This document shows positions 35,747-46,226 of a stretch of 64,000 nt of DNA, piece after piece; within the stretch, counting starts at the first letter, position 1, and each line of letters opens with the position of its first letter. A program made the position numbers and the translations under genes. Under the pieces are notes generated by a model. That model ran no database searches. It saw only the letters and a list, made by a program, of their open reading frames with translations, and was not told where the DNA came from. The DNA lies in assembly GCF_000772965.1 (NCBI RefSeq), contig NZ_JPVQ01000001.1:124001-188000 (forward strand). Reading direction: 5' to 3'. Source of the stretch: Ureibacillus massiliensis 4400831 = CIP 108448 = CCUG 49529. Lineage in GTDB: Bacteria > Bacillota > Bacilli > Bacillales_A > Planococcaceae.

Positions 35747-35835
35747 TGTGTTATTCCCACATGTTCAGATAAAAAACTTCTTTTTTTGAATATAATAATT
35801 AAATTTTTAAATCCCATGATGTTCAAATAAATGAT
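35747..35835 (-). ncRNA. crRNA-like regulatory RNA (CreR-type) with two degenerate repeats
   Basis: On the minus strand, 35833-35805 matches the array repeat at 22 of 29 positions, keeping TGAAC and the 3' handle TGGGATTTAAA. After a 27-nt spacer (35804-35778), 35777-35748 matches again with small indels (GTTTT, ATCTGAAC, GTGGGA). The spacer starts ATTTAATTATTATATTCAA; its first 19 nt match the cas6 5' region at 18 of 19 positions. A promoter reads into it: -35 TTTACA (35869-35864), 16-bp spacer, -10 TATACT (35847-35842), predicting a start near 35835, at the first degenerate repeat. CreR and CreA RNAs with degenerate repeats are known from other CRISPR loci. Transcription and processing by Cas6 are inference. 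Confidence 0.7.
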
Positions 35836-35841
35836 AGTACT

Positions 35842-35869
35842 AGTATACATATTTAAAATTAATTGTAAA
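35842..35869 (-). promoter_or_regulatory. Promoter of the crRNA-like RNA
   Basis: TTTACA at 35869-35864, 16-bp spacer and TATACT at 35847-35842 on the minus strand, back-to-back with the cas promoter (its -35 begins 18 bp away). Confidence 0.5.
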
Positions 35870-35886
35870 ATACTTCATTTTTATCA

Positions 35887-35915
35887 TTGACATTTATTAG
35901 GTTATTTTGTTATAT
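35887..35915 (+). promoter_or_regulatory. cas operon promoter
   Basis: TTGACA (35887-35892), 17-bp spacer, TTATAT (35910-35915), predicting a start near 35922 and a 5' untranslated region of about 45 nt to the cas6 TTG. Confidence 0.75.
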
Positions 35916-35935
35916 TTTGGTTATAAGTTGATAAA

Positions 35936-35957
35936 TTGAATAAAATAATTAAATAGG
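35936..35957 (+). promoter_or_regulatory. Predicted target of the crRNA-like RNA, next to cas6 RBS
   Basis: TTGAATAAAATAATTAAAT (35936-35954) matches the complement of guide positions 1-19 except position 12, which type I Cascade flips out of the duplex. The next three bases, AGG, are part of the AGGAG ribosome binding site and read 5'-CCT on the strand that carries the protospacer, a PAM-like triplet known for type I-B systems. Binding here would roadblock transcription from the cas promoter. Confidence 0.65.
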
Positions 35958-35967
35958 AGTGTTAAAT

Positions 35968-36699
35968 TTGAGAATTAGAATTCATTTGAAGACAAAAGAA
36001 ATTCCTATTCATTATCGTATGATGGTTCTGTCCTTAATTAAAGAAGCGATACGAACCAGCGATGAGAAATTATATCAAAGACTATATTTGGACAATGCTT
36101 CGAAACCTAAAACATATTCCTTTGCAGTCTATTTATCGAATCTAAATAAAAAAGAGAATGTTTTTGAGGTTGATGGTGCATCAGTTACAATTTCAAGCTC
36201 AAATCCAGAAATTGCAGTTTCATTGATTAATGGTTTTCAACAAATGAAAAAATATAGTTATCAAAAGTGGACACTTCAAATATTGAAAGTTGAATTATTA
36301 AAAGAGAAAACCATAAATAGTTCTGTTGTGAAATTTGTTACAAATAGTCCTTTGTTATTAGAAGACAAGGATAACAAGCCTTTGCTCATAACATCTAAAA
36401 ACTTTGAAGAGGAAGCAAATATTGTTAGTAATAAACAATTTTTATCTTTGTATGGAAGAACTCTTAAGAGACCAATTAAAATAAAAGACTTTAATATGAA
36501 AAAACAAGTTATTCAAGAATCGAATAGCCATGCTAATGGGCAAACATTATTCTACACATGTCAAAAAGGATTTATTACTTTAGAAGGAGATATAGAAGAT
36601 TTAAAACTAATATATCAGGATGGGTACCTTCTGAGAAAGTCCCAAGGGATGGGGCAACTGGAGGTGGTAAAAAGTTATGGTTCAAATTGTAGTGAATGA
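35968..36699 (+). CDS. cas6: CRISPR-associated endoribonuclease Cas6
   Basis: About 243 residues from TTG 35968, with GGAG 8 nt upstream; GTG 35959 overlaps it. Two ferredoxin-like halves and the C-terminal glycine-rich loop GYLLRKSQGMGQLEV identify Cas6. It cuts pre-crRNA within each repeat, leaving an 8-nt 5' handle (ATTTAAAG here). An N-terminal His (IHLKTKEIPIHYR) may be catalytic. First gene of the operon; it overlaps cas8b by 23 nt. The 5' region is the predicted target of the upstream guide RNA. Confidence 0.9.
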   Translation: MRIRIHLKTKEIPIHYRMMVLSLIKEAIRTSDEKLYQRLYLDNASKPKTYSFAVYLSNLNKKENVFEVDGASVTISSSNPEIAVSLINGFQQMKKYSYQKWTLQILKVELLKEKTINSSVVKFVTNSPLLLEDKDNKPLLITSKNFEEEANIVSNKQFLSLYGRTLKRPIKIKDFNMKKQVIQESNSHANGQTLFYTCQKGFITLEGDIEDLKLIYQDGYLLRKSQGMGQLEVVKSYGSNCSE

Positions 36700-38464
36700 T
36701 TGGATGACATCAATGGGAGCAGTTGCATTGTTAAGACTTGATGAGGATAAACAAGAAATTCATGCTAAAGCAAATACTTTAGAGGTACCAATTGAATGGT
36801 TAAAGCATTTGCCAGAGACATTATTCCAATACTTTTTAAAACATTATAGTGTAGCAGATCGTGAGTATCAAGCTCTTCAAAATTTAGTTAACATTTATAT
36901 AAGGAATTTAGAAAAGGAAGAATCAAAATTAAAGGAAAACATTAAATGGATAAATGAACGAGTAAAAAGTACATGTGACAAAGTAAAAAAGTATTTTCCT
37001 GATCTAGATGCTGAGCTTATAAACTGTATGTCAAATATAAAAATAGCTATGGAGTCTAAAGATACAAGGAAATTGGAAGATCAAATTGGACGTCTATATC
37101 AAATTTACAAACAACAAAAAATAGATCAAAAGTTAACATTAAACTGGGTTAAAGCAACTTTACTTTCATCCGCAGCAGGACAAGCTTCATTTTTAAATGT
37201 TGCAAAGAACGCTTTATCTTTTAAAGAACAAAAATCACTTTTTGAAAGAGATTATATATTGCCAGTTTTATGGGAATTGAGATTGAGAGAAAAATTTGAA
37301 AAAGGTGACGAAGAAGAAATAGAAGCATTATTTAAAATAGGAGAGAAACCTGAATATGCTAAATCTTGGGCGAGTGAAAAGAAAAAGTCAAAATTAAGTT
37401 GGTATGAATGGCTAAAAACTGTTCCAGAATGTGGTTTGATTGAAAATCAATGGGGAACTGCATCATTTGAAGAAATGCATTTCGTGCCACTTGGTATGAG
37501 TGTATCGAATGCTTATAACTATGCTTGGGATGGGAACCTTCAAGCGGTGCAATCGATTAGCGCATTAGCTAAATTATTGCTACTCCTTTCCCCATTAGGA
37601 ACGTATCGTTATAGACGCCCTAGTAAGGGTGAACTAGTTAATGTATTTGGCTTTTTACATGCAGAATCAAGCTGTCAAAAAACATTTATGTTAAATAATC
37701 AATTTTCAAATTCAATGAGAACAGATACAAGATTTAGTGAAGCAATCCGTGATTCCTTCGGCAAACTAAAAGAAATAGAAAATCGACGCAATGAAGTGAC
37801 TGTGCTTATTGAATGGGATACAGATTATAAAGCGAAAAAAACATTTCTAGAATATAAAAGTTTAAATCCGAATTTTGTAGATTACATTATTTCTACAAAA
37901 GAAAATGTTATAGAGAAGATATCTCCTTACCAATTTCGTGAAGAAATTATTCGAGCTGCTTTTGATAATTTAGATTGTAAAAATTTAATTATGAAAGAAA
38001 TGCATCGAATAATGAACCTGCCAACAACTAATAGAGACACGTTTTCACTTAAAAATGCACTTATAATGAGAGAACATCTATTGATGTTAAAGGAGGAAAA
38101 AAACTTGCTAACGGAAAAAACTGTAACTGAAAAAATGTACGCATTGGGTTTTCGAATTGCACAAACATTAGGAGGGAAAAAGGAAGAAGCTACAGATACT
38201 CTCTATCAAGCTCCGAATGAGAAAAAACTAACTTCTACAGCTTATCGACTCTTAAATGCTGCTAAAGCGGGAAATAGGGAACTATTTTTTGATACAGTAG
38301 TTCGATTACACTTGGCTGCAAATATGAATGTAGGGAAAAATTTAGTTAAAGCAGTAGATTTAAACACCTCAGATAAGGAATTTACATCTATAGCTTTAGC
38401 ATTCATAGCAGGACTTACTCCGGGAAAAAAACAAATAATAGAAGAAACAGAAGTAAAACTTTAA
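36677..38464 (+). CDS. cas8b: Type I-B large Cascade subunit Cas8b1/Cst1
   Basis: 595 residues, ATG 36677 with GAGGTGG upstream, overlapping cas6. Length, position between cas6 and cas7, and motifs such as NDWMTSMGAVALLRL, WLKHLPETLFQYFLKHY and RYRRPSKGELVNVFG fit the Cas8b1 (Cst1, Tneap) form. It recognises the PAM and recruits Cas3. A middle coiled region (residues ~75-160) is Lys/Glu-rich. The family diverges fast, so the subtype comes mostly from synteny. Confidence 0.85.
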   Translation: MVQIVVNDWMTSMGAVALLRLDEDKQEIHAKANTLEVPIEWLKHLPETLFQYFLKHYSVADREYQALQNLVNIYIRNLEKEESKLKENIKWINERVKSTCDKVKKYFPDLDAELINCMSNIKIAMESKDTRKLEDQIGRLYQIYKQQKIDQKLTLNWVKATLLSSAAGQASFLNVAKNALSFKEQKSLFERDYILPVLWELRLREKFEKGDEEEIEALFKIGEKPEYAKSWASEKKKSKLSWYEWLKTVPECGLIENQWGTASFEEMHFVPLGMSVSNAYNYAWDGNLQAVQSISALAKLLLLLSPLGTYRYRRPSKGELVNVFGFLHAESSCQKTFMLNNQFSNSMRTDTRFSEAIRDSFGKLKEIENRRNEVTVLIEWDTDYKAKKTFLEYKSLNPNFVDYIISTKENVIEKISPYQFREEIIRAAFDNLDCKNLIMKEMHRIMNLPTTNRDTFSLKNALIMREHLLMLKEEKNLLTEKTVTEKMYALGFRIAQTLGGKKEEATDTLYQAPNEKKLTSTAYRLLNAAKAGNRELFFDTVVRLHLAANMNVGKNLVKAVDLNTSDKEFTSIALAFIAGLTPGKKQIIEETEVKL

Positions 38465-38480
38465 AAGGGAGGAATAGGAC

Positions 38481-39386
38481 ATGGGTAAAACATTGACAAT
38501 AACAATCGTATTTGAAGCAGGATCACTTAATTATGGAGAAGGATTTGCGAACATTTCTGAATTGAAAAAATTTAATCGGGCAGACGGAAATATATACTCT
38601 TTCGCATCACGTCAAGCACTAAGATATGACATTGTTCGTTTAGGAAACGAATGGTTTGATTGGAATCTTGATGTAGTATCGAAAGAAAAAGGTACTGTGC
38701 AATTTAAAGACGAAGTGACTATTGAAGATTCCGTTGAGATGGATTTATTTGGTTATTTAAAAACTGGGAAAAAATCATTAAAACGTGCGGCTGTTGTACG
38801 CTTAAGCCATGCCGTTTCATTAGAACCCTATAATGGTGATATGGAGTTTTTAAATAATATGGGTTTAGCTGAAAGGAATAAATTAGATCCTAACTTAGCG
38901 AATATTGAAAATCATATTAGTTTATACACATATACGATTACGATTGATTTGGATAAAATAGGTATCGACTCAAATGATAACGTGACATTGAGTAATGAAC
39001 AGCGTTTTGAACGTGTACAACAATTTTTAGAAATTGTTAAGCTGTTATCACGTCATATTAGAGGTCGACAAGAAAATTTAGCACCTTTATTTATTGTAGG
39101 TGGTGTATATCCATATGCAAATCCTTTATTCCAAGGACGTATTCAACTGAAAAATGGTGAACTACAAGTAAATCCTTTGATTGAAGTAATGGAAACCACT
39201 TTTGCGGGAAGTAGTGTTAAAGGTGATACTTTAATTGGCATAGCATCAGGAAAATTTAGTAATGAACAAGAATTTCGTTCTACTTTTGCTGAAAATATTT
39301 CTACTATTGAAGAAACATTTCAGGTCCTTATAAATCAGGTGGCACAACATTATGGAGTGAAACAAAATGCGACTGTTAAGGCTTAA
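38481..39386 (+). CDS. cas7: Cascade backbone protein Cas7 (Cst2/DevR)
   Basis: 301 residues with GGGAGG upstream. LTITIVFEAGSLNYGEG at the N-terminus, the Arg-rich SRQALRYDIVRLG, KRAAVVRLSHAVSLEPYNGD and YPYANPLFQGRI match the Cst2/DevR branch of Cas7, the RNA-coating filament of type I-B Cascade. Overlaps cas5 by 20 nt. Confidence 0.92.
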   Translation: MGKTLTITIVFEAGSLNYGEGFANISELKKFNRADGNIYSFASRQALRYDIVRLGNEWFDWNLDVVSKEKGTVQFKDEVTIEDSVEMDLFGYLKTGKKSLKRAAVVRLSHAVSLEPYNGDMEFLNNMGLAERNKLDPNLANIENHISLYTYTITIDLDKIGIDSNDNVTLSNEQRFERVQQFLEIVKLLSRHIRGRQENLAPLFIVGGVYPYANPLFQGRIQLKNGELQVNPLIEVMETTFAGSSVKGDTLIGIASGKFSNEQEFRSTFAENISTIEETFQVLINQVAQHYGVKQNATVKA

Positions 39387-40074
39387 AATATTTCAAGAAA
39401 CGGCGTGCTATCAAAAACCGTTTGCCTTTAAGGTAGGAGAAACATATCCGTTAGCCCCATTTTCTACTGTAAAAGGAATGCTTCATTCCATTTTAGAAGC
39501 AACAGAATATATCCCAATGAATTTGTCGATTCAAGGAAAAAGTGAAAGTATTATCATCGACTATTCTAATAAATTTATGTTTAAAAAGGCATCAGTACAA
39601 CTGCCATTAAATATGGATGGGTTAGTATTAGAGATAGAACCTGAAAATGTAACTACTATGCCAATGTATCAGCATCTTTTATACAATATAGAGCATGTAA
39701 TTCATGTTGAGACCGAAGAAAGTGTACTTAAAAGGCTTTATGAAAACCTTACTACTCCTACTAAAACTCTTAGTCTTGGACGCTGGGAAGATCTTGTACG
39801 GATTGATGAAGTATGCTTTGTAGAAGCAGAAGAAACGTATAATAAAGTAAAAACTCAAATGGACCTTTTTGTTCCAAGAGATATTGCAAATCAACGTAAA
39901 GATTTGAGAGGAGACATAGTAAAAACTTATTATCGTCTTACTCGAAAATACGAGATTATTAGAGGGAAAAGGGTTTGGGACTATATCCCAGTTGCTTTTT
40001 TACCATCAGGACAAACGTTTATAAATCCAGTTTTATTTGACTCAAAGTATCCAGTATTTTTAATGAAAGGGTAG
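39367..40074 (+). CDS. cas5: Cascade subunit Cas5 (Cas5t)
   Basis: 235 residues. RLKIFQETACYQKPFAFKVGETYPLAPFSTVKGMLHSIL is the Cas5 N-terminal RAMP with the G-rich/aromatic loop that caps the 5' handle of the crRNA; LGRWEDLVRIDEV is also typical. The ATG lies inside the end of cas7. Confidence 0.92.
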   Translation: MRLLRLKIFQETACYQKPFAFKVGETYPLAPFSTVKGMLHSILEATEYIPMNLSIQGKSESIIIDYSNKFMFKKASVQLPLNMDGLVLEIEPENVTTMPMYQHLLYNIEHVIHVETEESVLKRLYENLTTPTKTLSLGRWEDLVRIDEVCFVEAEETYNKVKTQMDLFVPRDIANQRKDLRGDIVKTYYRLTRKYEIIRGKRVWDYIPVAFLPSGQTFINPVLFDSKYPVFLMKG

Positions 40075-40083
40075 AAGTATAAA

Positions 40084-42393
40084 ATGGTGTTTTATGCGAA
40101 ATCGAAACCAGATATATTAACTATTTCAGAACATACAAGTGATGTACTTGATGGTGTGGAGGTGCTTCGTCGTACATACGGCGAACGCCTTTTTCTTTTA
40201 AATGAAAAAGATTGGGAACTACTAAGATATGCAGCTTTATATCATGATGTAGGAAAGTATAGTGATGGCTTCCAAAACAAAATCCATAGTGCTATTCACA
40301 ACAAAAAAGCTATTCAAATAGAAAACTATCCTCATAACTATTTATCAGTTGCATTAATTCCTTTTTATGAGTTAGAGGATACAACCATTTTTGAATTTGA
40401 AGATTTATATTTATTAGCCTTGATTGTTGGTTACCATCATGAACGGGATCGTTTACCGAATAATAGTGAAATTATAGAGATTTTCAATACACAGCTTCGT
40501 CGATATTTAGAGCAAATTAAAAATGATATAGGTATACCGATAGCTGATGAACCGTACGAACAATATATAAAAATAATAAACAATAGAAGGGACATTTATT
40601 ACTCTGAGACAAAAGCATTACTTAATAGATACATTCTATTAAAAGGTTTACTTCACCGTGCAGACTATGCTGCTTCAGCAAAGAGAAAGCATGAAGCAAT
40701 CGAAAATTATGTTGAGCAAGCGATTAATGAGTCAGTTGGTGAGAAAGTAACAGACTATATGAAAGTAAAAAATTATGACTTTAGAGAACTTCAAGTAATA
40801 GCATCAGAACATCAAGATAAAAATATTTTACTTGTTGCTCAAACAGGTAGTGGAAAAACGGAAGCTTCATTATTATGGATAGGTCAAGAAAAAGGATTTA
40901 TTACATTACCTTTGCGTGTGAGTATTAATGCTATGTACGATAGAATTCGTAATGAAAATAATATAGGGTTTCAATCTACAGGGTTGCTTCATTCGGGAGC
41001 ATTTGATTATTTATTTGTAAGTACTGAGGATTCTGAAGATGAATCTTTTGAGTTAACAACAACTCAACTATTGCAAGCGGAATTACTTGCTTCCAAGCTT
41101 ACGCTATCCACCATCGATCAAATTTTTAAATTTCCTTTATTATATAGAGGTTTTGAAAAAGAATTAGCTACACTTGCATATTCAAAAGTTGTAATAGATG
41201 AGATTCAGTCCTATGACCCTCATATTGTAGCAATATTAATTCAAGGAATTGAAATGATTACAAAATTAGGTGGGAAATGGATGATTATGACAGCTACTTT
41301 GCCAGCTATTTTTGTGGATGAACTAAAAAAACGTAAACTTCTAGAGCCGGATATAACAAAACAATGCAAAGTTATATTACCTAATAATCCAAAAGAAAAT
41401 AAAAATGCAGTTCCAATAAGGCACAAGATTCAGCTATTGAATAAAGGTATTTTAAATTGTGTAGAAGAAGTTATTAGCCTGGCTGAGGACAAGAAAGTTT
41501 TAATTGTTGTCAATACAGTATTGCAAGCGCTAGCTATGTATGATGCTTTAAATAATGAGCCTAATATAAATGTGAATCTTTTACATTCACAATTCACCTC
41601 AAAGGATCGCCAACAAAAAGAAGCAGCAATTAAATCCTTTGGTCAAATCGATAGTAATGAAGCTGGAATTTGGATTACAACTCAAATTGTTGAGGCATCT
41701 ATTGATGTGGATTTCGATTATTTATTTACAGAAGCAGCAACGCCTGACTCCTTATTCCAACGTTTTGGACGATGTAATAGAAAAGGGAAACGTTATCCAA
41801 AAACTATAGTTCCTCTTGAACCAAATGTCTTTATTTGTACACAAGAGGTTTCAGGTTTGGAGTCAATTTATGAAGAGACTATTGTTGAAAATGGTCTGGA
41901 GGCATTGAAAAAATTTGACGGGCAATTAATAGACGAAGAATCAAAAATTAATATTGTTGAATATATTTTTAGTCGAGAAAATTTATCAGGAACAAAGTAT
42001 TTAAAGACATTTGATGAATCTCTTAAAGAGCTAAAAAAATTAACTCCTTTTAATCTAGAAAAATCTGATGCTCAAAAAATATTAAGAGACATCACGAGTT
42101 GTTTAATTATTCCTGGACGTGAGTGTTTTAATGAAGCGATGGAATTAATAGAGGAATATGAAAAATTGGATAAGAAAGATACGATTGGAAGGAAAAAAAT
42201 TATTTATCAATTAAATCAATTAACGATTTCAGTTAATCGGTGGAGGTTAGAGGTTCGTAAAAAAGAAAAAGGATTTAAGTTAAATAGACTTGATCATAAA
42301 GCATTTAGTCATATTTTATATGCGTCAGTAAAATATTCAACTGAGCGAGGTTTAGAATTAGCTTGCGATGATGTATCGAGTAGATTTTTTTAA
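40084..42393 (+). CDS. cas3: CRISPR-associated helicase-nuclease Cas3
   Basis: 769 residues. N-terminal HD nuclease (ISEHTSDVLDG, YHDVGKYSDGFQNK, GYHHERDRLP) fused to a superfamily 2 helicase: Walker A AQTGSGKTEASLLW, DEIQ box VIDEIQSYDP, MTATLP, and motif VI FQRFGRCNRKGKR. It degrades DNA marked by Cascade. Starts 9 nt after cas5. All key motifs appear intact, so interference should be possible. Confidence 0.95.
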   Translation: MVFYAKSKPDILTISEHTSDVLDGVEVLRRTYGERLFLLNEKDWELLRYAALYHDVGKYSDGFQNKIHSAIHNKKAIQIENYPHNYLSVALIPFYELEDTTIFEFEDLYLLALIVGYHHERDRLPNNSEIIEIFNTQLRRYLEQIKNDIGIPIADEPYEQYIKIINNRRDIYYSETKALLNRYILLKGLLHRADYAASAKRKHEAIENYVEQAINESVGEKVTDYMKVKNYDFRELQVIASEHQDKNILLVAQTGSGKTEASLLWIGQEKGFITLPLRVSINAMYDRIRNENNIGFQSTGLLHSGAFDYLFVSTEDSEDESFELTTTQLLQAELLASKLTLSTIDQIFKFPLLYRGFEKELATLAYSKVVIDEIQSYDPHIVAILIQGIEMITKLGGKWMIMTATLPAIFVDELKKRKLLEPDITKQCKVILPNNPKENKNAVPIRHKIQLLNKGILNCVEEVISLAEDKKVLIVVNTVLQALAMYDALNNEPNINVNLLHSQFTSKDRQQKEAAIKSFGQIDSNEAGIWITTQIVEASIDVDFDYLFTEAATPDSLFQRFGRCNRKGKRYPKTIVPLEPNVFICTQEVSGLESIYEETIVENGLEALKKFDGQLIDEESKINIVEYIFSRENLSGTKYLKTFDESLKELKKLTPFNLEKSDAQKILRDITSCLIIPGRECFNEAMELIEEYEKLDKKDTIGRKKIIYQLNQLTISVNRWRLEVRKKEKGFKLNRLDHKAFSHILYASVKYSTERGLELACDDVSSRFF

Positions 42394-42409
42394 ATGAGGA
42401 GATGCTGTA

Positions 42410-42922
42410 ATGTTTGAAGTAGGAGGTTTACACATCCAATATTACGCAATATGCAAACGAAAACTTTGGTTATATAGCCGACAAATTTCATTTGAAACAG
42501 AAAATGATCGTGTAATTGAAGGTACGTTACTTCATGAAAGTTCTTATCAACGAAAAGATAAAGAACTTATGGTTGGATAATCCGCTAAAATTGATGTTAT
42601 TGATTCAGAGTTTGTTCAAGAAACAAAGCTTTCTAGCAAAATGAAAAATGCTGATGAACTTCAGCTTTTATATTATCTTTATATATTGAAAAAACGTGGA
42701 ATTGAAAAGCGGGGTAAAATTGCCTACACCAAGGAGAAAAAAGTTATTGAAATTGAGTTAGATGAAAAAAATGAAGAAAAAATTCGAAAAGTTATAGCAG
42801 AAGTCTATAAAATAGTTGAGAATGAAGCTGCTCCAACATTAAAAAAACTAACATACTGTAAAAGCTGTGCGTATTTTGATTTTTGCTATGCAGAGGAAGG
42901 AGAAGGGGAAAATGCAAAGTGA
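42410..42922 (+). pseudogene. cas4: cas4, interrupted by in-frame TAA
   Basis: ATG 42410 opens GGLHIQYYAICKRKLWLYSRQI, the Cas4 N-terminus with its first iron-sulfur Cys. TAA at 42578-42580 stops it at codon 57. Past the stop the frame continues with the RecB-type metal residues (KIDVID, QETKLS) and the C-terminal cluster CKSCAYFDFC to 42922. Everything but one codon looks functional; a single substitution explains it. Cas4 selects and trims spacers with a correct PAM, so acquisition could be altered. ATG 42641 could start only a C-terminal piece. The end overlaps cas1. Confidence 0.85.
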
Positions 42923-43895
42923 TATTTTTGTGTTTTCAAACGGACGACTTCAACGAAAAGACAATACTCTTTATATTCTTGCAGAGGATGGTCGTAAACG
43001 TCCAGTCCCGATTGAACAGATAGAGAATGTTCACCTATTTGGACAAATAGATTTAAATAGCTCTTTATTAAATTTTGTTGGTCAAAAAGAAGTAATCCTT
43101 CATTTTTATAACTATTATGGTTTTTATACAGGAAGTTTTTACCCAAGGGAGCAAAAGGTGTCAGGAATTGTGACAGTAAAACAAAGCGAGCACTATTTAA
43201 TAAAAGAAAAAAGGCTCTATTTAGCTCAAAATTTTGTGAAATCTGCTGCATTCCATATGATTCGTACCTGTAGAAAGAGAAAAAATATTGATTCAGAATC
43301 TGTAAAAGAAATTATGAAATTAGACAAAGAGATTGATAAAACAAAAAATGTTCAACAAACAATGGGGATAGAGGGGATGATACGTCAACATTATTACAAA
43401 GCCTTAAACGAAATGATTCCTCAAGAATTTATTTTTGAAGAAAGAAGTAAAAGACCTCCAAGAGATCCATTTAATGCGTTAATATCATTCGGAAATACTA
43501 TGATGTACACTGCCGTTTTATCAGAAATATATAAAACACATTTAAACCCTACAATTAGTTATTTACATGAACCCTCACAAAAGCGATTTTCCTTATGTCT
43601 AGATTTGGCAGAAATATTTAAGCCTATGTTGGTAGATCCATTATTGCTAACCCTGGTTAACACGAAGAAAATTCAACTAAAGCATTTTGACGATCATGAA
43701 GGAATGATCCATTTAAACGAAGAGGGTAGAAAAATTTTTATTACGGCATTTGATGAACGTCTACAAAGTACAATTCGTCATAGAAAACTAAATCGAAATG
43801 TATCTTATAGATATTTGATTCGATTAGAATGTTATAAACTAATTAAACATGTTATTGGTGATACAAAGTATATTCCATTGAAAGCATGGTGGTAA
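42912..43895 (+). CDS. cas1: CRISPR integrase Cas1
   Basis: About 327 residues from ATG 42912 (GGAG upstream, overlapping cas4 in another frame). The acidic and His residues of the active site lie in GIEGMIRQHYY (Glu), LHEPSQKRFSLCLDLAEIFKP (His and Asp). FDERLQSTIRHRKLNRNVSYR is a type I-B Cas1 feature. Inserts spacers at the leader end together with Cas2. Intact. Confidence 0.95.
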   Translation: MQSDIFVFSNGRLQRKDNTLYILAEDGRKRPVPIEQIENVHLFGQIDLNSSLLNFVGQKEVILHFYNYYGFYTGSFYPREQKVSGIVTVKQSEHYLIKEKRLYLAQNFVKSAAFHMIRTCRKRKNIDSESVKEIMKLDKEIDKTKNVQQTMGIEGMIRQHYYKALNEMIPQEFIFEERSKRPPRDPFNALISFGNTMMYTAVLSEIYKTHLNPTISYLHEPSQKRFSLCLDLAEIFKPMLVDPLLLTLVNTKKIQLKHFDDHEGMIHLNEEGRKIFITAFDERLQSTIRHRKLNRNVSYRYLIRLECYKLIKHVIGDTKYIPLKAWW

Positions 43896-43896
43896 A

Positions 43897-44160
43897 ATGT
43901 TTGTAATTATTACCTATGATGTAAATGAAAAAAGAGTAGGAAAAGTTTGTAAAAAACTAAGAGAACATTTAACTTGGACTCAAAATTCAGTATTTGAGGG
44001 TGAGATAACAAAAGGACAATTTTTAAAATGCAGGCAACAAGTAGAAAAAATAATAAACCCAGAGGAAGATAGTATTTATTACTATATTGTAGAGAATCCC
44101 AAAAATATTAAGAAGGAATTTAAAGGAACTGAAAAAGGAGATTTTGACATCTTTTTTTAA
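43897..44160 (+). CDS. cas2: CRISPR-associated protein Cas2
   Basis: 87 residues. FVIITYDVNEKRVGKVCKKLREHLTWTQNSVFEGEIT is the Cas2 ferredoxin fold with the conserved Asp after the first strand (YDV). Starts one base after the cas1 stop. Last cas gene; the array leader follows. Confidence 0.95.
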   Translation: MFVIITYDVNEKRVGKVCKKLREHLTWTQNSVFEGEITKGQFLKCRQQVEKIINPEEDSIYYYIVENPKNIKKEFKGTEKGDFDIFF

Positions 44161-44312: not shown

Positions 44313-46226
44313 GTTTTATCTGAACGTAGTGGGATTTAAAGGAATAGTACGTGGGACGACTTCACGTCGCATTGTAAGTTTTATCTGAACGTAGTGGGAT
44401 TTAAAGTTTCAAAAATTTTTATAGTTTAATAGAAGAAAAGAGGGTTTTATCTGAACGTAGTGGGATTTAAAGTAAAAACTATCCGAACTAATGTAATCGG
44501 AGCGGGACGTTTTATCTGAACGTAGTGGGATTTAAAGGGAATTACTCCTAAAATACAAGCGCGTAATCGTCTTGTTTTATCTGAACGTAGTGGGATTTAA
44601 AGTGATTTCGTCTTTTAAATGGACATTTCCGCTACCAGTTTTATCTGAACGTAGTGGGATTTAAAGAAAAATTAAGGGGTGTCGTATTATACCACAAAAA
44701 TGTTTTATCTGAACGTAGTGGGATTTAAAGTGACCCAGTTGTCGGAATCTGATGTTTTAGACTTAAGTTTTATCTGAACGTAGTGGGATTTAAAGCACTC
44801 AGATTTTAAATCTACGGTATCTCAATATACTGTTTTATCTGAACGTAGTGGGATTTAAAGTAGTGTAATAATGTTCTTTCGTGTTAATTGTTTCAGTTTT
44901 ATCTGAACGTAGTGGGATTTAAAGTAGTCATGATACTTCCATCGTTAAATTTCACTAAAGGTTTTATCTGAACGTAGTGGGATTTAAAGACTGCATATAC
45001 TTTTCCGCTATTTTGTCCGATTGCGTAGTTTTATCTGAACGTAGTGGGATTTAAAGGACCCAAATATTTATAAAACTCATACCACTCTGTCCGTTTTATC
45101 TGAACGTAGTGGGATTTAAAGAGTTAAATGTTCATTCAGTCTAGCAATGCCGTTATTGTTTTATCTGAACGTAGTGGGATTTAAAGGGTTCTGAAAAACG
45201 TGTATCAAAGTATTCACCTATAGTTTTATCTGAACGTAGTGGGATTTAAAGTCAGAAGTATTTGATTTGTTCACAATGCATAGACATGGTTTTATCTGAA
45301 CGTAGTGGGATTTAAAGAATGGCCAAAATGTAGAAGTATTAAAACACAGAAAAACGTTTTATCTGAACGTAGTGGGATTTAAAGTTAGAGGATACCGATT
45401 CTTTTAACTTTTCTAACATAGTTTTATCTGAACGTAGTGGGATTTAAAGGACGAACAGATGAAAACTTTTCTACATACCATCCCTGTTTTATCTGAACGT
45501 AGTGGGATTTAAAGGAGTTACCATTAATTTTTTATAATACCAAAGGAAAAGTTTTATCTGAACGTAGTGGGATTTAAAGTGGACTATGGGTGCTTGCTGA
45601 GGGCATTATTTACGTTTTATCTGAACGTAGTGGGATTTAAAGTTTGCTTTTACTCTCGATATAAACATAAAAATACCGTTTTATCTGAACGTAGTGGGAT
45701 TTAAAGGCAGTAATCGAATAATTTCTCTCGCTTCATCTTTAGTTTTATCTGAACGTAGTGGGATTTAAAGAATAATTTAATTAAAATTTTGTATAAAAAA
45801 GAACGGGTTTTATCTGAATGTAGTGGGATTTAAAGAATGGTTTCATCACATTTCTTCCGAGCAACCCCATTGTTTTATCTGAACGTAGTGGGATTTAAAG
45901 AATTATCCTGAAGTTGTAACAATGGACTTCTTAATGTTTTATCTGAACGTAGTGGGATTTAAAGAGCCAACCAAATAAAGCGCCAAATGCGTCACCGATT
46001 GTTTTATCTGAACGTAGTGGGATTTAAAGTAACCAAAACCAATATGTTTTGGAACGGGGTTTTCCTCGTTTTATCTGAACGTAGTGGGATTTAAAGGACG
46101 TTCGTGATTCACTTTATTTTTCTCGAAATAGGCGTTTTATCTGAACATAATGGGATTTAAAGTTGTTCGTTTCAACATACATGTTCCAGGAGAAATTGTT
46201 TTATCTGAACGTAGTGGGATTTAAAG
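44313..46226 (+). CRISPR. Type I-B CRISPR array, 30 repeats and 29 spacers
   Basis: The 29-bp repeat begins GTTTTATCTGAACG and ends GTGGGATTTAAAG. Starts: 44313, 44378, 44444, 44509, 44574, 44638, 44702, 44767, 44832, 44896, 44961, 45028, 45093, 45158, 45223, 45289, 45356, 45421, 45486, 45551, 45614, 45678, 45742, 45807, 45872, 45936, 46001, 46068, 46134, 46198. Spacers are 34-38 nt, mostly 36. Repeat 24 has one change (GAATG for GAACG) and repeat 29 two (AACATAAT for AACGTAGT); the last repeat is perfect. All spacers look different. The orientation, with the leader next to cas2, gives the 5' handle ATTTAAAG. Confidence 0.98.

What the first reader, a model, noticed from the sequence alone, without database searches (positions are those of the whole stretch)
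35936..35957. The spacer of that RNA matches the cas6 5' region at 18 of 19 positions, with a PAM-like CCT and a mismatch only at guide position 12
Guide nucleotides 1-19 (ATTTAATTATTATATTCAA) pair with TTGAATAAAATAATTAAAT at 35936-35954. The match begins exactly at the repeat-spacer boundary, the single mismatch is position 12, and type I Cascade flips out every sixth guide base. Positions 20-27 do not match. The bases next to the target, AGG of the AGGAG ribosome binding site, read 5'-CCT on the protospacer strand. The target lies about 14-32 nt past the predicted cas start. Together this suggests Cascade binds without cleaving and represses its own operon, sensing free Cascade or anti-CRISPR proteins. 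An antisense effect on the mRNA is also possible, since the guide is complementary to it. AT-rich DNA lowers the weight of the match, but the coincidence of boundary, PAM and position 12 is hard to explain by chance.
Basis: partly seen in the sequence, partly recalled or inferred. Interest (0 to 1): 0.95.

Follow-up and report, generated by a model that had tools for sequence, protein, structure and literature searches.

The report
Self-silencing guide RNA of a CRISPR operon
A small decayed CRISPR unit beside a bacterial type I-B CRISPR operon very probably makes a guide RNA that sends the CRISPR complex back to switch off its own genes; the principle is already published, and this is a well-supported new example with counterparts in related bacteria.

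Summary
A degenerate two-repeat unit (minus strand, about 35748-35833) carries a guide whose nucleotides 1-19 match the cas6 5' leader (35936-35954) at 18 positions, with the mismatch at 12 and a CCT flank made by the Shine-Dalgarno AGG. None of 20,000 shuffled guides does as well nearby. In the 4.0-Mb assembly the pattern occurs only as guide and target.

Comparison supports the interpretation. Of 30 homologous loci, 14 have such a unit. In 14 of 14 the single best of 1,096 sites lies upstream of cas6 behind CCA or CCT (background 1.8%), although guides differ. Mismatches gather at positions 6 and 12 (18 of 28 cells; 3 of 140 at 1-5 and 7-11). A second sample of 10 loci gave 3 more. The searches found no unit in 16 of 30 and 7 of 10. 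Five of the 14 guides have mRNA sense, so antisense pairing cannot explain the family.

This is a CreR (cas-regulating RNA), a kind published in 2023: a new member. Possibly new is the overlap of PAM and Shine-Dalgarno (11 of 17). No expression or binding was shown.

The parts
35842..35869 (-). Predicted sigma-A promoter of the guide RNA (TTTACA, 16 nt, TATACT), ending just before the first repeat copy
   Evidence: 10 of 12 consensus matches; the scan finds as many sites in shuffles (4 found, mean 4.0), so position is the main argument
35805..35833 (-). First degenerate repeat (psi-R1), 7 of 29 mismatches to the array repeat; 3' end gives the 8-nt handle ATTTAAAA
35776..35804 (-). 29-nt spacer analogue; nucleotides 1-19 are the guide. 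Spacers of the window's array are 34-38 nt
35748..35775 (-). Second degenerate repeat (psi-R2); aligned core 35755-35774; its 3' handle part has decayed
   Evidence: outer edges estimated by eye
35887..35916 (+). Predicted cas operon promoter (TTGACA, 18 nt, TATATT)
   Evidence: 11 of 12 consensus matches; same caution as for the other promoter
35936..35954 (+). Target of the guide in the cas6 5' leader, downstream of the predicted promoter; the guide pairs with this strand
35955..35959 (+). Shine-Dalgarno AGGAG; its first three bases read CCT on the protospacer strand, the presumed PAM
35968..36699 (+). cas6, TTG start, first gene of the operon
   Evidence: start codon chosen by alignment with relatives
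36677..38464 (+). Putative cas8 (large subunit)
   Evidence: Pfam Cas_CXXC_CXXC just above its cut-off (21.7 against 21 bits), no NCBIfam hit; position in operon
38481..39386 (+). cas7 (Cst2/DevR family)
39367..40074 (+). cas5 (type I-B)
40084..42393 (+). cas3 (HD and helicase)
42410..42922 (+). cas4, interrupted by an in-frame TAA at 42578-42580
42867..43895 (+). cas1 (type I-B)
43897..44160 (+). cas2
44313..46226 (+). CRISPR array, 30 repeats (consensus GTTTTATCTGAACGTAGTGGGATTTAAAG) and 29 spacers

Best explanation
The unit at about 35748-35833 is a creR gene. A short minus-strand transcript, starting near 35835, is cut by Cas6 in the first degenerate repeat to give a crRNA-like RNA with handle ATTTAAAA. 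It loads into type I-B Cascade. Cascade recognises the CCT formed by the complement of the cas6 Shine-Dalgarno and pairs with 35936-35954. Position 12 is not read, and the pairing is too short for Cas3. The bound complex blocks transcription of the cas operon just downstream of its promoter. When array crRNAs compete for Cas proteins, or an anti-CRISPR disables Cascade, repression would lift. Shown by sequence: the unit, the match, the flank, the positional mismatch pattern and guide-target co-variation across loci. Inferred: transcription, processing, binding, repression and its relief.
For: Match and chance test. 14 of 30 homologous loci carry such a unit; 14 of 14 have their unique best site, scored without regard to the flank, in the cas6 5' region behind CCA (7) or CCT (7), background 302 of 16,716. 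Native pairs match 13.9 of 15 core positions on average, 182 swapped pairs 6.8. Mismatches at 6 and 12 in 18 of 28 cells against 3 of 140 at 1-5 and 7-11; taking one member per cluster of all 17 pairs, 14 of 28 against 1 of 140. A repeat-anchored scan with CCA/CCT hits 12 of 30 cas6 upstream segments and 2 of 414 control segments; with any flank 13 of 30 and 10 of 414. Second sample: 3 of 10 loci. Three array spacers of related systems that match phages perfectly all have CCA. Published CreA needs nucleotides 1-5 and 7-11, not 6 and 12 (PMC8501985, passages). In Haloarcula I-B, spacers of 24 nt or less repress without interference (PMC10989794, abstract and passages).
Against: No RNA, binding or expression data. 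No such unit was found in 16 of 30 first-sample loci or 7 of 10 second-sample loci, so it is not universal. The window's 29-nt spacer is longer than the 24 nt called safe in Haloarcula, where 28-30 nt still cleaved a little; and there 16- and 20-nt spacers left about two thirds of the mRNA (one mid-gene target), so a 19-nt match might repress only weakly. No convincing protospacer of the window's own array was found, so its PAM is taken from relatives. CCT was not seen among nine phage protospacers, and six imperfect ones show CCA only once. L024 matches only 11 of 15 core positions, which shuffled guides reach; L021, L025, L026 and L059 are also reached by the best of 60 shuffles when the flank is ignored, though not at CCA/CCT sites.
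Confidence: 0.88

Rival explanations
1. Antisense control: the minus-strand RNA pairs with the cas6 mRNA next to the Shine-Dalgarno and blocks translation without Cascade.
For: In the window and 8 other of 14 loci the guide is complementary to the cas coding strand, and the target abuts the Shine-Dalgarno in 8 of 14.
Against: In 5 of 14 loci (L023, L024, L025, L026, L063) the protospacer is on the coding strand, so the guide cannot pair with the mRNA. An antisense RNA would not need a CCA/CCT flank, repeat handles, or free positions 6 and 12.
Confidence: 0.05
2. CreTA-like module: the unit represses a small toxin RNA, and the cas6 leader is hit only because it lies nearby.
For: Same anatomy: two degenerate repeats beside a I-B operon, seed 1-5 and 7-11 (PMC8501985, passages).
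Against: The target lies between the predicted cas promoter and the cas6 start, 13 nt before the start codon, so what follows it is cas6. A toxin gene elsewhere in the region was not searched for.
Confidence: 0.04
3. Ordinary self-targeting spacer or chance match in AT-rich DNA, with a decaying array remnant.
For: The 700 nt upstream are 69% A+T, and no unit was found in 16 of 30 loci. In L088 the guide sits at the end of a true array.
Against: 0 of 20,000 shuffles reach the match; 14 of 14 CCA/CCT flanks; swapped pairs fail; guides of different clusters share on average 7.5 of 16 bases, at most 12.
Confidence: 0.02

Closest known systems
CreR, cas-regulating RNA (Liu et al. 2023, Cell Host Microbe, doi 10.1016/j.chom.2023.08.005; not held, known here from passages of the reviews PMC13131331 and PMC12737573)
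   Same: crRNA-like RNA with partial complementarity to the promoter of its own cas operon; reported for I-B, I-E and V-A; generally no toxin partner
   Different: In the window the target is the leader next to the Shine-Dalgarno, downstream of the predicted promoter; the reviews speak of the promoter. Whether the original covers this could not be read
CreA of CreTA modules (PMC8501985, passages read; also PMC9458426, passages)
   Same: Two divergent degenerate repeats, guide seed 1-5 and 7-11, positions 6 and 12 free, PAM inside the complement of a purine-rich element (there the archaeal BRE)
   Different: Represses an RNA toxin; here the target leads straight into cas6
CRISPR-derived regulatory RNA elements surveyed by Shmakov et al. 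2023 (doi 10.1093/nar/gkad495; not held; title seen in reference lists)
   Same: By its title, a wide survey of such elements in CRISPR-Cas systems
   Different: Content not seen, so overlap with these loci is unknown
Natural single-guide RNA by which Cas9 autoregulates its own expression (Workman 2021, title seen in a reference list; details recalled)
   Same: RNA-guided autorepression of a cas operon, relieved by anti-CRISPRs (PMC13131331, passage)
   Different: Type II, tracrRNA-derived (recalled), not crRNA-like

Membership tests
CreR | Ectopic degenerate repeats flanking a spacer analogue next to the cas operon | tested here: met
CreR | Partial complementarity of the guide 5' part to the cas promoter or leader | tested here: met
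   18 of 19. It is the leader rather than the predicted promoter
CreR | PAM of the resident system beside the target | tested here: inconclusive
   CCT here; CCA/CCT in 14 of 14 homologous pairs and CCA at 3 of 3 perfect phage matches of related arrays, but no protospacer of the window's own array and no CCT among the phage protospacers
CreR | Guide and target co-vary between homologous loci | tested here: met
   swap test; second sample
CreR | The target controls cas genes, not a toxin | tested here: met
   Target lies in the cas6 leader, 13 nt before the start codon
CreR | RNA is expressed and processed by Cas6 | not testable with these tools
   handle sequence retained but no RNA data
CreR | Cascade with this RNA represses cas; crRNAs or Acr relieve it | not testable with these tools
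   needs experiments
CreTA | Guide represses a small toxic RNA gene | tested here: not met
   Target between predicted cas promoter and cas6 start, with no room for another gene

The most novel reading that the evidence does not exclude
In this Bacilli group the ribosome-binding site of the first cas gene doubles as the PAM of the RNA-guided repressor (11 of 17 pairs). The operon then cannot lose the PAM without harming translation of cas6, and Cascade blocks both elongation and the ribosome site: a mutation-resistant form of CreR, often with shortened guides.
Probability: 0.4. Interest if true: 0.55.

Novelty: new member of a known kind. Interest (0 to 1): 0.42.

Why it matters
It shows RNA-guided cas autorepression as the likely rule in part of the type I-B systems of Bacilli (by name Caryophanon, Kurthia, Paenibacillus and two Bacillaceae MAGs), with a natural set of guide-target pairs from which the guide positions that Cascade reads can be seen in sequence alone. 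It also gives a simple way to find such regulators: degenerate repeat, guide, CCA/CCT target close to the cas6 Shine-Dalgarno. L088, where the guide sits at the end of a true array, hints at how such units arise.

Tried and rejected
PAM from the window's own array: no convincing protospacer in phages (best E 2 among the rows listed); the one plasmid record hit is distant (73.5%) and was not examined. Arrays of five related loci were used instead: L051 (one of its two arrays), L052, L056 and L063 gave matches, L060 none. Nine phage protospacers of seven spacers were read: three perfect ones with CCA; six imperfect ones with CCA, TCA, TCA, ACT, TCG and ACA. Other matches listed were not followed.

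Antisense, CreTA and chance were considered and set aside as told under rivals. The 16 first-sample loci without a unit were scanned for any repeat-preceded guide against the cas6 5' region and gave none with CCN or, with a one-base shift allowed, CCA/CCT; so did 7 of 10 second-sample loci. One L067 candidate had no CC flank. The first scan of named genomes found nothing, which left one more scan.

The original CreR paper and the Shmakov survey are not held, so novelty of the Shine-Dalgarno point is open; paper searches made.

Full report
What is there. The window holds a type I-B operon, cas6-cas8-cas7-cas5-cas3-cas4-cas1-cas2 (35968-44160), followed by an array of 30 repeats. Upstream of cas6, on the minus strand, lie two degenerate repeat copies: 35805-35833, 7 mismatches in 29, and a second with aligned core 35755-35774. 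A 29-nt spacer analogue lies between them. Local-alignment scores are 36 and 31 against a maximum of 26 in 100 shuffles; blastn of the own genome with an array probe also finds the unit. Promoter-like sites fit: TTTACA/TATACT on the minus strand just before the unit, and TTGACA/TATATT for the operon, though the scan finds as many sites in shuffles.

The match. Guide nucleotides 1-19 agree with 35936-35954 at all but position 12, behind CCT. Of 20,000 shuffles of the guide none reaches 18 of 19 among 1,092 nearby sites. In the 4.0-Mb assembly the pattern with position 12 free occurs only as guide and target; about 0.006 chance matches are expected.

Comparison. Cas6 relatives were found in 10 of 261 family genomes including the own one and in 20 of 398 class genomes including the own one. 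I took 30 loci from 28 genomes: the window, 9 of the family and 20 of the class. Not taken from the table: G345 (weakest hit, E 2.7e-8); the two G517 pieces count as one locus. Positions are counted from the start of the Cas6 match, which in several loci (for example L023, L056) lies a few codons after the start codon. Fourteen of 30 have a two-copy degenerate unit within 350 nt upstream of cas6, on the minus strand in 9 and the plus strand in 5. The choice of 14 was made by reading the hit table. By repeat score alone some are no better than the best of 100 shuffles: both copies in L019, L021 and L050, and the second copy in L020, L023, L057, L060 and L063; there the guide match carries the case.

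Guide-target pairs. Scoring positions 1-17 equally and ignoring the flank, the named target is the unique best of 1,096 sites in 14 of 14 loci, and all 14 have CCA (7) or CCT (7); the background of these flanks is 302 of 16,716. Native pairs average 13.9 of 15 core matches, 182 swapped pairs 6.8; the high swaps are the sister loci L019/L020 (13 both ways) and two at 11. Per-position mismatches in 14 pairs: position 6, ten; position 12, eight; positions 1-5 together one; 7-11 together two. Because the same targets win when 6 and 12 are counted, the pattern is not made by leaving them out. With one member per cluster of all 17 pairs, 14 of 28 against 1 of 140. This is the CreA rule of nucleotides 1-5 and 7-11 (PMC8501985, passages). 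L024 is weak: 11 of 15, within reach of 60 shuffles even at CCA/CCT sites; L021, L025, L026 and L059 are reached by the best shuffle when the flank is ignored.

Controls. The repeat-anchored scan with CCA/CCT finds 12 of 30 cas6 upstream segments and 2 of 414 segments elsewhere in the same loci; with any flank 13 and 10 (Fisher p 7e-14 for the first). At its thresholds it misses L019 and L024.

Second sample. A scan of named genomes gave 15 loci. Of the 10 new ones (L082 and L083 from one species) three carry a pair. L088 (CCA, 16 of 17) and L090 (CCT, 15 of 17) win without conditioning on the flank. L084 has its best site in the right place (14 of 17) but with flank CTA; a one-base shift of the guide start gives CCT and a lone seed mismatch at 6 (a scan that required CCA/CCT and looked only at -170..+20). 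Unshifted, another CCT site at -373 scores 13 of 17, so L084 is the least certain. Seven of 10 show none.

PAM. Array spacers of related systems that match phages perfectly (L052, 35 of 35; L051, 39 of 39 and 36 of 36) have CCA. Six imperfect matches have CCA, TCA, TCA, ACT, TCG and ACA; two of these are a second phage's versions of protospacers already counted. Clostridioides difficile I-B has consensus CCA (PMC10732046, passage). CCT is supported by the regulator pairs alone.

Mechanism. In 5 of 14 loci the guide has the sense of the cas mRNA, so DNA binding by Cascade, not antisense pairing, explains the family. The spacer analogue is 29 nt in the window and 15 to 42 nt over the 14 loci; window array spacers are 34-38 nt. 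In Haloarcula I-B, spacers of 24 nt or less repress without interference, 28-30 nt still cleave a little, and 16- or 20-nt spacers against one mid-gene site left about two thirds of the mRNA (PMC10989794, abstract and passages). With 19 matched nucleotides, repression without cleavage is expected but its strength is open. Relief by competing crRNAs or anti-CRISPRs is taken from reviews (PMC12737573, passages and its section 3.2; PMC13131331, passages).

Shine-Dalgarno as PAM. In the window and 7 other of 14 loci the flank is the complement of AGG or TGG of the cas6 Shine-Dalgarno stretch; by eye the same holds for L084, L088 and L090 (sequences): 11 of 17. [quoted passage not shown]

Verdict. 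The finding is real and its main reading is well supported. The kind is known (CreR, 2023), so this is a new member. The Shine-Dalgarno coupling may be a new detail; I could not read the two papers that would settle it.

Noticed in passing
window 42410-42922: cas4 is interrupted by an in-frame TAA at 42578-42580; its second part still matches Cas4. Spacer acquisition may be affected.
   Followed up: partly
L088:9727-9779: In Paenibacillus sediminis the regulating guide follows the last repeat of a true array, whose final base differs from the other repeats; this suggests that such units can arise from array ends.
   Followed up: partly
L024, L025, L026, about 116-154 nt upstream of cas6: In a second I-B group the spacer analogues are 40-42 nt and the targets lie farther upstream and on the other strand than in the window's group.
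   Followed up: partly
L021, L023: Spacer analogues of only 18 and 15 nt by repeat alignment, much shorter than array spacers.
   Followed up: no
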